The notes beneath the pieces were generated by a model, which saw nothing but the letters and a program-made list of their open reading frames with translations, did not search any database and was not told the DNA's origin. From Brucella thiophenivorans (GTDB lineage Bacteria > Pseudomonadota > Alphaproteobacteria > Rhizobiales > Rhizobiaceae): DNA of 64,000 bases. Location: positions 496,001 to 560,000 of the forward strand of contig NZ_NNRJ01000015.1 of assembly GCF_002252445.1 (NCBI RefSeq), given 5' to 3'. Positions 18,184 to 21,175 of the stretch are shown one piece after another. Position numbers and translations under genes: made by a program. The number at the start of each line of letters is the position of its first letter. The stretch's first letter is position 1.

Positions 18184-18314
18184 CATCAATATCGGCATTG
18201 CTGCTATGCAGTTTCTGCACTTCTCAAAACGATTAAAAAGACGGAAGCTTCATATCGGGAGGAAGGTAAAAAAGCACAGCGCATTGTTTGCGCGGCACAT
18301 AAGGGGATACCATT

Positions 18315-18464
18315 ATGAACCACCTTCGCACTCGTTTTTCCCGTTGGATGCAGTATCGTGAAAACCTTCGCGAACTGAGCTGCTGCACTGATCGCGATCT
18401 TTCAGACCTTGGTATTTCACGCGACGACATTCGCCGCGTGGCTCAAGAAGCAGCCTTTGTTTAA
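18315..18464 (+). CDS. DUF1127 mini-protein
   Basis: 49 residues, opening MNHLRTRFSRWMQYRENLREL. The core YRENLRELSCCTDRDLSDLG and ISRDDIRRVAQE are the DUF1127 signature (arginine-rich helix, then RDLxDLGISRxDI). AAGGGG lies 8 bases before the ATG. These small basic proteins are abundant in alphaproteobacteria; one from Rhodobacter (CcaF1) is RNA-binding and co-transcribed with CCUCCUCCC-type sRNAs. That pairing is notable because an sRNA of that type lies 2.6 kb downstream here, though not in the same unit. Confidence 0.9.
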   Translation: MNHLRTRFSRWMQYRENLRELSCCTDRDLSDLGISRDDIRRVAQEAAFV

Positions 18465-20906: not shown

Positions 20907-21062
20907 AACACTGTTTTTGCAGCATATTTTTCTTTATTTGATTATTATCTGAGCATATTCGGTATGTTTGCATTTTTGCATCAATCTTAAGCATCGGCGT
21001 ATTTGCATAACTGATATGCGTTATTGGGCGTTGTTGAATAAAGAGGCGCTTGGTAAACATTG

Positions 21063-21175
21063 GTCATCGGGTTCACTCCTCCTCCCAGAACCCGATGACG
21101 GATACGGCACTCCTCCTCCCAGCCGTATTCAAGATCAGGCCGCGCATCCTCCTCCCGCGCGGCCTTTTTCTTTTT
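21063..21175 (+). ncRNA. cuckoo-like sRNA: three hairpins with anti-Shine-Dalgarno loops
   Basis: Three consecutive hairpins, each presenting CCTCCTCCC in the loop. H1: 12-bp perfect stem 21063-21074/21088-21099, loop 21075-21087. H2: 9-bp stem (one G-T) 21100-21108/21122-21130, loop identical to H1 in all 13 bases. H3: 9-bp perfect stem 21137-21145/21157-21165, 11-base loop, followed by an 11-base T-rich tail, so it is also the terminator. Stem sequences differ while loops are conserved, the mark of a functional RNA. The motif pairs with GGAGG ribosome sites. This fits the alphaproteobacterial cuckoo/CcsR sRNA group (CCUCCUCCC motif). The 5' end and promoter are not determined; no protein frame is present. 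Confidence 0.85.

What the first reader, a model, noticed from the sequence alone, without database searches (positions are those of the whole stretch)
21063..21175. Triple-hairpin RNA whose three loops all carry the anti-Shine-Dalgarno motif CCTCCTCCC
Three adjacent stems (12, 9 and 9 bp) have unrelated sequences but the same loop motif; loops 1 and 2 are identical over 13 bases, and the third hairpin doubles as a terminator. Selection on the loops with compensatory freedom in stems is the pattern of a functional RNA. The motif is the reverse complement of a strong ribosome site. Alphaproteobacterial cuckoo/CcsR sRNAs are known with this motif, typically as two hairpins; three in one unit would be a less usual form. 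It lies between lrgAB and the electrophile-detoxification fusion gene.
Basis: partly seen in the sequence, partly recalled or inferred. Interest (0 to 1): 0.85.

Follow-up and report, generated by a model that had tools for sequence, protein, structure and literature searches.

The report
Triple-loop small RNA blocking ribosome sites
It is one more copy of a known bacterial small RNA with three identical loops that can block ribosome-binding sites, and its promoter, like those of most sister copies checked in related genomes, carries the likely binding site of one regulator (VtlR/LsrB), which points to a shared switch.

Summary
It is not a new RNA: it is a full-length Rfam ar14 (alpha-r14, NfeR1, 'cuckoo') sRNA, 85.9 bits against a cut-off of 58.8. 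Three such hairpins with unlike stems are that family's published form, so 'less usual form' is wrong; the CcsR1 model fails (28.5 of 65.3 bits). The unit stands at this place in 22 of 22 Brucella-clade loci and in 0 of 58 others. Its control looks new: the upstream element GCATAACTGATATGC (21005-21019) fits the published VtlR/LsrB box. A box of that form precedes all 4 ar14 units over cut-off in this genome and 46 of 51 in 11 same-genus genomes (0.02 expected), including 23 of 24 that follow a DUF1127 gene. Reported VtlR targets in Brucella are abcR2 and three DUF1127 genes; the three papers I searched for it do not name ar14. Most likely it is a VtlR-activated, trans-acting blocker of ribosome-binding sites. 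Transcription, VtlR binding and targets are not shown here.

The parts
21005..21019 (+). GCATAACTGATATGC: VtlR/LsrB-type operator (fits published GCAT-N3-TG-N3-T); ends 40 bp before the Rfam match
   Evidence: GCATAAC[T/A]GNNATGC in 24 of 24 orthologues, GCATNNCTGNNATGC in 23 of 24, the exception being L045; one of only 2 GCATNNCTGNNATGC in the window, 0.10 expected; all 4 ar14 units over cut-off in the genome have a box GCATANCTGNNNTGC
21031..21036 (+). possible weak -35 element TTGTTG (inferred)
   Evidence: CGTTG 21029-21033 invariant in 24 of 24; not found by the sigma-70 scan
21054..21059 (+). possible weak -10 element TAAACA, 17 nt after the -35 (inferred)
   Evidence: TA 21054-21055 invariant in 24 of 24; not found by the sigma-70 scan
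21059..21170 (+). ar14 (alpha-r14 / NfeR1-type) sRNA, full-length Rfam match
   Evidence: RF02344, 85.9 bits, model 1-123 of 123
21063..21099 (+). hairpin 1, 12 bp, 13-nt loop with the aSD motif at 21078-21086
   Evidence: three outer pairs not conserved
21100..21130 (+). hairpin 2, 9 bp, 13-nt loop with the aSD motif at 21112-21120
21137..21165 (+). hairpin 3, 9 bp, 11-nt loop with the aSD motif at 21148-21156; terminator-like
   Evidence: invariant in 24 of 24
21166..21175 (+). T-rich tail TTTTCTTTTT
   Evidence: read directly
18195..18209 (+). second VtlR-type box, GCATTGCTGCTATGC, before the DUF1127 gene
18315..18464 (+). DUF1127 small protein gene (49 aa), about 2.6 kb upstream of the sRNA; predicted member of the same regulon
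   Evidence: PF06568 at 2.8e-13; read

Best explanation
The unit is an ar14-family trans-acting sRNA of roughly 105-115 nt. Each of its three stems displays an unpaired CCUCCUCCC, much like the ribosome's own anti-Shine-Dalgarno tail. The loops pair with purine-rich ribosome-binding sites (GGGAGGAG-like) of several mRNAs, probably many of them for ABC-transporter binding proteins, and block translation start; three equal loops raise the chance of a hit. Hairpin 3 also ends the transcript. Transcription starts at a weak promoter just upstream and is switched on by VtlR (LsrB) bound at 21005-21019. Shown here: structure, family membership, conservation, the box and its association with ar14 units. 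Taken from published work on relatives: silencing through redundant aSD loops and activation of NfeR1 by LsrB in S. meliloti. Inferred: that this copy is transcribed, that VtlR binds here, and which mRNAs it hits.
For: Full-length Rfam match over cut-off; fold z -8.75; same place in 22 of 22 Brucella-clade loci, each with exactly three CCTCCTCCC 5' of the gene; 753 of 791 cells of the window's fold pair in 24 orthologues, one compensated pair; four ar14 copies over cut-off in the genome. Box before 4 of 4 of these and before 46 of 51 ar14 matches in 11 genomes: 23 of 27 stand-alone copies at 39-44 bp, 23 of 24 DUF1127-linked copies at 84-110 bp before the DUF1127 domain; 0.018 units expected. 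Box in either orientation before 17 of 44 ar14 clusters of other genera, shuffles mean 0.12, maximum 1 of 100. The genome has a LysR gene between the end of a trxB-like gene and an ar15 (AbcR) sRNA, the vtlR arrangement described for B. melitensis (PMC12595884, passages). Of its four strong DUF1127 genes, three have a box and the fourth (C46:120108) has none in 350 bp, as PMC12595884 reports three VtlR-activated DUF1127 genes and a fourth without the motif. GGGAGGAG-N3-9-ATG: 22 sites, 2 for the reversed pattern; 7 of 22 begin ABC-transporter genes. NfeR1: three redundant aSD motifs, LsrB as activator (PMC10746234, passages).
Against: No transcript data. The sigma-70 scan finds no promoter at the inferred site. 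The published short VtlR box alone is uninformative: 18 matches in the window, 17.8 expected. The extended pattern was set after I had seen upstream DNA of several stand-alone ar14 copies, and the 10 comparison genomes were picked by me from 34, mostly for few contigs. Of 51 genus copies 5 lack the exact box; 3 of these have a reversed form, 2 (L225, L227) none; 27 of 44 clusters outside the genus lack it. 34 of 85 boxes lie near neither ar14 nor ar15-like RNAs. Target evidence is weak: GGGAGG is a general ribosome site here (172 against 29), AG does not stand out after it (12 of the 100 listed, AA 20), and the ABC share is not significantly above that of GGGAGG[C/T] sites (7 of 22 against 2 of 20, one-sided p 0.09; among frames of 100 aa or more 7 of 17 against 2 of 11, p 0.20).
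Confidence: 0.85

Rival explanations
1. A CcsR-type stress RNA driven by RpoHI/RpoHII and induced by heat or singlet oxygen.
For: Same loop motif; weak CcsR1 match, 28.5 bits; DUF1127-linked sister copies resemble the ccaF1-CcsR operon (PMC10253847, passages).
Against: CcsR1 gathering score 65.3 not reached; the window copy has no DUF1127 gene directly upstream, the nearest being about 2.6 kb away; the conserved upstream element is of VtlR type. RpoH promoters were not tested.
Confidence: 0.08
2. Only the terminator region of lrgAB, without an RNA of its own.
For: It begins 156 bp after the lrgB stop and hairpin 3 is terminator-like.
Against: Two further hairpins with the same loops; a conserved upstream box; ar14 units stand at three other places of the genome.
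Confidence: 0.03
3. A cis-acting leader or attenuator of the glyoxalase-esterase gene downstream.
For: In the 22 Brucella-clade loci its last aSD motif ends 133-303 bp before that gene.
Against: In 58 of 58 other loci the gene has no such unit in the fetched flank; the unit ends in a terminator-like hairpin; sister copies stand elsewhere.
Confidence: 0.02

Closest known systems
NfeR1 (Smr14C2/SmelC397) of Sinorhizobium meliloti, alpha-r14 family (Rfam RF02344 ar14)
   Same: Three hairpins, each with CCUCCUCCC, and unlike stems; a LysR-type (LsrB) box upstream (passages of PMC10746234 and PMC7143759).
   Different: Another genomic place. The box here fits GCAT-N3-TG-N3-T (and T-N11-A), not the exact TGCA-N6-GCAT given for S. 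meliloti; the NtrC site there is reported as not evident in Brucella promoters (PMC10746234, passage).
SmelA075 / SmelA099 ('cuckoo' RNAs with three and four aSD hairpins)
   Same: The same loop module; several copies per genome (PMC3927594, section 2.7 read whole).
   Different: SmelA099 has four hairpins; in this genome the DUF1127-linked copy at C10:291968 (L004) looks like that form (by eye).
CcsR1-4 with CcaF1 (DUF1127) of Rhodobacter sphaeroides
   Same: The CCUCCUCCC motif; the DUF1127-sRNA arrangement is shared by two of the four copies here.
   Different: Two hairpins (RS0680a in PMC3927594) and an RpoHI/II promoter (PMC10253847, passage) there; CcsR1 model not met here.
AbcR1/AbcR2 (Rfam ar15, RF02345)
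   Same: The ar15 copy of this genome also has a CCTCCTCCC loop and, upstream, a box that fits GCAT-N3-TG-N3-T; ABC-transporter mRNAs are the known targets (PMC7486931, passage).
   Different: Another family; the window unit does not match it.

Membership tests
Rfam RF02344 ar14 | Covariance model score at or above the gathering score | tested here: met
   85.9 of 58.8 bits, full length
Rfam RF02344 ar14 | Three hairpins, each with CCUCCUCCC unpaired | tested here: met
Rfam RF02344 ar14 | Stems differ between members while pairing is kept | tested here: met
   Four copies over cut-off in this genome with unlike stems, judged by eye; within the orthologues only one compensated pair
Rfam RF02344 ar14 | Terminator-like third hairpin | tested here: met
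   Hairpin 3 plus T tail, stem invariant in 24 of 24; not listed by the simple scan
Rfam RF02344 ar14 | RpoD promoter (CTTAGAC-N17-CTATAT) with a conserved upstream stretch | tested here: inconclusive
   Conserved upstream element yes; hexamers only weakly like the consensus and not found by the scan
Rfam RF02344 ar14 | Expressed RNA that silences mRNAs through the aSD loops | not testable with these tools
   Needs RNA and reporter data
CcsR1 (Rfam RF02791) | Covariance model score at or above the gathering score | tested here: not met
   28.5 of 65.3 bits
CcsR / CIN1 locus | DUF1127 gene directly upstream | tested here: not met
   Not for the window copy (nearest about 2.6 kb away); met by 2 of 4 copies of this genome
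CcsR / CIN1 locus | RpoHI/RpoHII promoter | not tested
   No RpoH model was used
VtlR/LsrB regulon | Box GCAT-N3-TG-N3-T upstream | tested here: met
   GCATAACTGATAT at 21005-21017, conserved; the extended form stands before 46 of 51 ar14 matches of 11 genomes
VtlR/LsrB regulon | Protein binding and VtlR-dependent expression | not testable with these tools
   Needs EMSA, ChIP or mutant RNA data
ar15 / AbcR (RF02345) | Covariance model score at or above the gathering score | tested here: not met
   No match at the window unit

The most novel reading that the evidence does not exclude
In Brucella and its close kin VtlR (LsrB) is chiefly a switch for anti-Shine-Dalgarno small RNAs. It would directly activate the ar14 loci, both stand-alone copies such as this one and copies transcribed as the tail of a DUF1127 mRNA, together with AbcR2. 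Two of the three box-bearing DUF1127 genes would then also be carriers of ar14 RNAs, and the ar14 RNAs would be overlooked effectors of the regulon. That could explain why supplying the three DUF1127 genes and abcR2 did not rescue a vtlR mutant. A model of VtlR acting mainly through sRNAs (AbcR1, VrsA, Atu1667) is already published for A. tumefaciens; what would be new is the ar14 family as its core in Brucella.
Probability: 0.55. Interest if true: 0.55.

Novelty: new member of a known kind. Interest (0 to 1): 0.33.

Why it matters
The RNA itself is a further ar14 copy. The useful part is the link: one regulator box at fixed spacing in front of most ar14 loci checked in the genus, including the DUF1127-linked ones. 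That turns a list of VtlR targets into one testable circuit (LysR regulator, ribosome-site-blocking RNAs, transporter mRNAs), connects it with the LsrB-NfeR1 circuit of nitrogen-fixing symbionts, and offers candidates for the unexplained part of the VtlR phenotype.

Tried and rejected
The published short VtlR box as a stand-alone detector: uninformative. Selection for sRNA-extended ribosome sites: not shown. GGGAGGAG-N-ATG is above its reversed control (22 against 2), but so is GGGAGG in general (172 against 29), and AG does not stand out after GGGAGG in the first 100 of 172 sites, which is all the call listed; AAGGAGGT-N-ATG is at background, 6 against 6. ABC-transporter enrichment against GGGAGG[C/T] sites: not significant (controls were the first 20 such sites of the listing; 10 of their 11 frames of 100 aa or more were scanned, the eleventh, L249, was judged by eye). 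Of the 22 GGGAGGAG sites 18 frames were scanned; the four left out are frames of 25-53 aa, one of them antisense to an ar14 copy. First pair count: the structure was set on the wrong columns; disregarded, replaced. Paper searches with the term ar14 (0 papers) and RF02344 (0 papers) say little, since 'ar14' does not match the Greek spelling; and the finds used 'alphar14'.

Full report
What is there. Window 21063-21175 holds three adjacent perfect hairpins of 12, 9 and 9 bp. All three loops hold CCTCCTCCC; these are the only three occurrences in 64 kb, 0.11 expected. Loops 1 and 2 are identical over 15 nt. Hairpin 3 is followed by a T-rich tail. The stretch folds at z -8.75.

What it is. Rfam's ar14 model (RF02344) matches 21059-21170 over its full length at 85.9 bits, cut-off 58.8; it is the only Rfam match in the window at gathering level. 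CcsR1 scores 28.5 against a cut-off of 65.3. The literature describes alpha-r14 RNAs as three hairpins, each with the identical aSD motif, with highly variable stems (PMC10746234 and PMC7143759, passages). A 2011 survey describes the same module in two, three and four copies (PMC3927594, section 2.7 read whole, other passages seen). Three loops are thus the norm. PMC7143759 (passage) says that the family occurs in Brucellaceae and that S. meliloti has six copies. This genome has four over cut-off and one weak match of 32.2 bits; a further weak match (21.3 bits) is in fact an ar15 RNA.

Conservation. A search with the downstream glyoxalase-esterase protein found 87 relatives and kept the best 80. 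In 22 of them (L038-L058, L066: 20 named Brucella, Ochrobactrum or Falsochrobactrum, two named only 'Rhizobiales bacterium') three CCTCCTCCC hairpins stand 5' of the gene; in the other 58 there is no such unit in the fetched flank. Two of the 58, L114 and L115, have a double hit of the shorter CCTCCTCC within 35 nt, far from the gene. In 24 orthologues (window, L037 and the 22) hairpin 3 is invariant, hairpin 2 varies at one pair on one side, and hairpin 1 has one compensated pair, G-C in 8 and A-T in 16; its three outer pairs fail in many rows; 753 of 791 cells pair overall. Free stems are therefore a matter of paralogues, not of this locus.

Sister copies. The other ar14 copies over cut-off are at C46:166157 (stand-alone), C46:286312 and C10:291968. 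The last two lie 105 and 94 bp after a DUF1127 domain; the last one looks like a four-hairpin form by eye. Over 11 same-genus genomes (G000 and 10 that I picked from 34, mostly for few contigs) 24 of 51 ar14 matches follow a DUF1127 domain by 42-127 bp; one of the 51, G025:C6, has 57 bits and is just under the cut-off. The DUF1127-CcsR association as such is known (CIN1 locus; PMC10253847, passage). The ar15 (AbcR) copy at C76:60848 (L006) lies beside a LysR gene and the end of a trxB-like gene. PMC12595884 (passages) describes trxB, vtlR and abcR2 in that arrangement in B. melitensis; that the LysR gene here is vtlR is inferred from it.

The upstream element. In the orthologues the longest conserved upstream stretch is TTTGCATAAC[T/A]GNNATGC (window 21002-21019). 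It fits the VtlR box GCAT-N3-TG-N3-T proposed for B. abortus and A. tumefaciens (PMC7486931, passages and section 11 read), and so does the reverse complement of the B. abortus motif quoted in PMC12595884. The short box alone is uninformative (18 matches in the window, 17.8 expected). GCATNNCTGNNATGC occurs twice in the window, 0.10 expected: before this sRNA and before the DUF1127 gene at 18315-18464.

Test of the element. GCATANCTGNNNTGC occurs 7 times in this genome; four of these stand before the four ar14 units, two directly and two before the DUF1127-ar14 unit. Over the 11 genomes 46 of 51 ar14 matches have it: 23 of 27 stand-alone copies at 39-44 bp, 23 of 24 DUF1127-linked ones at 84-110 bp before the DUF1127 domain. 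There are 85 boxes: 46 at ar14, 5 at weak ar14 matches that I take for ar15 (all at 44 bp; only the G000 copy, which is not among the five, was confirmed as ar15), and 34 elsewhere. The reversed pattern gives 27 hits in the same genomes. Expected from the density of boxes: 0.018 units (rounded genome sizes). Of the five misses, three (L223, L224, L226) have a reversed form and two (L225, L227) none. Caution: the pattern was set after I had seen 130 bp upstream of several copies. The boxes of DUF1127-linked units lay beyond that, so their 23 of 24 is the cleaner test. Outside the genus, 17 of 44 ar14 clusters (all clusters with a match over cut-off in the 24 other-genus genomes searched; 23 of these genomes have one) have a box in either orientation, shuffles mean 0.12, maximum 1 of 100; 27 do not.

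Agreement with reported targets. PMC12595884 (passages) reports abcR2 and three DUF1127 genes as VtlR-activated and a fourth DUF1127 gene without the motif. This genome has four strong DUF1127 genes: two ar14-linked ones with a box, the one in the window with a box, and C46:120108 with none in 350 bp. The ar15 copy has a box that fits the short form. The same paper says that supplying those four targets did not restore the vtlR mutant.

How it most likely works. By analogy with NfeR1, whose three aSD motifs are redundant and which LsrB activates (PMC10746234, passages), VtlR/LsrB bound about 60 to 46 bp before the presumed start would recruit polymerase to a weak promoter. The RNA would present three equal loops that mask GGGAGGAG-like ribosome sites. 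In this genome 22 GGGAGGAG sites stand 3-9 nt before an ATG, 2 for the reversed pattern. One is antisense to an ar14 copy; 17 open a frame of 100 aa or more; 7 of these are ABC-transporter parts, six binding proteins and one ATPase. This agrees with the known target class but is weak: 2 of 20 control sites are too (p 0.09; 7 of 17 against 2 of 11 long frames, p 0.20), and GGGAGG is simply a common ribosome site here.

What is known and what is not. Known: the family, its structure, its presence in Brucellaceae, LsrB control of NfeR1, VtlR control of abcR2 and DUF1127 genes, and a model of VtlR acting through sRNAs in A. tumefaciens (PMC7486931, passages). Not seen in print by me: VtlR control of ar14 in Brucella. 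The basis is limited: word finds in a review of Brucella sRNAs, the B. melitensis VtlR paper and the A. tumefaciens VtlR paper give no hit for alphar14, NfeR, cuckoo or CcsR, and the listings of paper searches show no title on it. Reinkensmeier 2015, Sheehan 2015 and Grutzner 2021 are not held. The 2017 NfeR1 paper is cited in PMC10746234 as having aligned promoters including Brucella and found a conserved 29-nt upstream stretch, so part of this may already be in print.

Verdict. A well-conserved member of a known sRNA family; the shared regulator box is a testable extension.

Noticed in passing
window 18195-18209 and 18315-18464: A 49-aa DUF1127 gene with a VtlR-type box about 105 bp upstream, about 2.6 kb before the sRNA. 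In 7 of the 10 compared relatives (G007, G009, G010, G011, G013, G018, G031) a DUF1127 gene lies 2.5-2.8 kb before an ar14 copy in the same orientation (positions), as if other genes had come between the parts of an older DUF1127-ar14 unit.
   Followed up: partly
L152 (G000:C10:518206), L254, L257, L258, L260, L261: A perfectly palindromic VtlR-type box, GCATAGCTGCTATGC, lies upstream of a pyruvate dehydrogenase E1 (pdhA-like) gene: a simple motif match finds the gene start in 6 of the 9 genomes looked at; the E1_dh domain was confirmed for L257 only. VtlR may touch central carbon metabolism directly.
   Followed up: partly
L004 (G000:C10:291968), L009-L014: DUF1127-linked ar14 copies that look like four aSD hairpins (by eye), so the three-hairpin Rfam model covers only part of them. 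The DUF1127 link was tested for L004 and L009 only.
   Followed up: partly
G009:C2:1855581-1856412, G011:C2:258067-258890, G028:C44:231332-232162: Pairs of ar14 copies in divergent orientation about 0.6 kb apart.
   Followed up: no
G077:C23:266663-267184, G080:C12:149477-150162: Tandem arrays of four ar14 matches (G077, one of them under the cut-off) and five (G080, all under the cut-off, two overlapping) in other genera of the family.
   Followed up: no
L005 (G000:C6:188351): A weak ar14 match (32.2 bits) that looks like two hairpins with shortened aSD loops; no short VtlR box in the 500 bp upstream.
   Followed up: no
L002 860-949 (-): A glycine riboswitch about 0.55 kb from the ar14 copy at C46:286312.
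   Followed up: no
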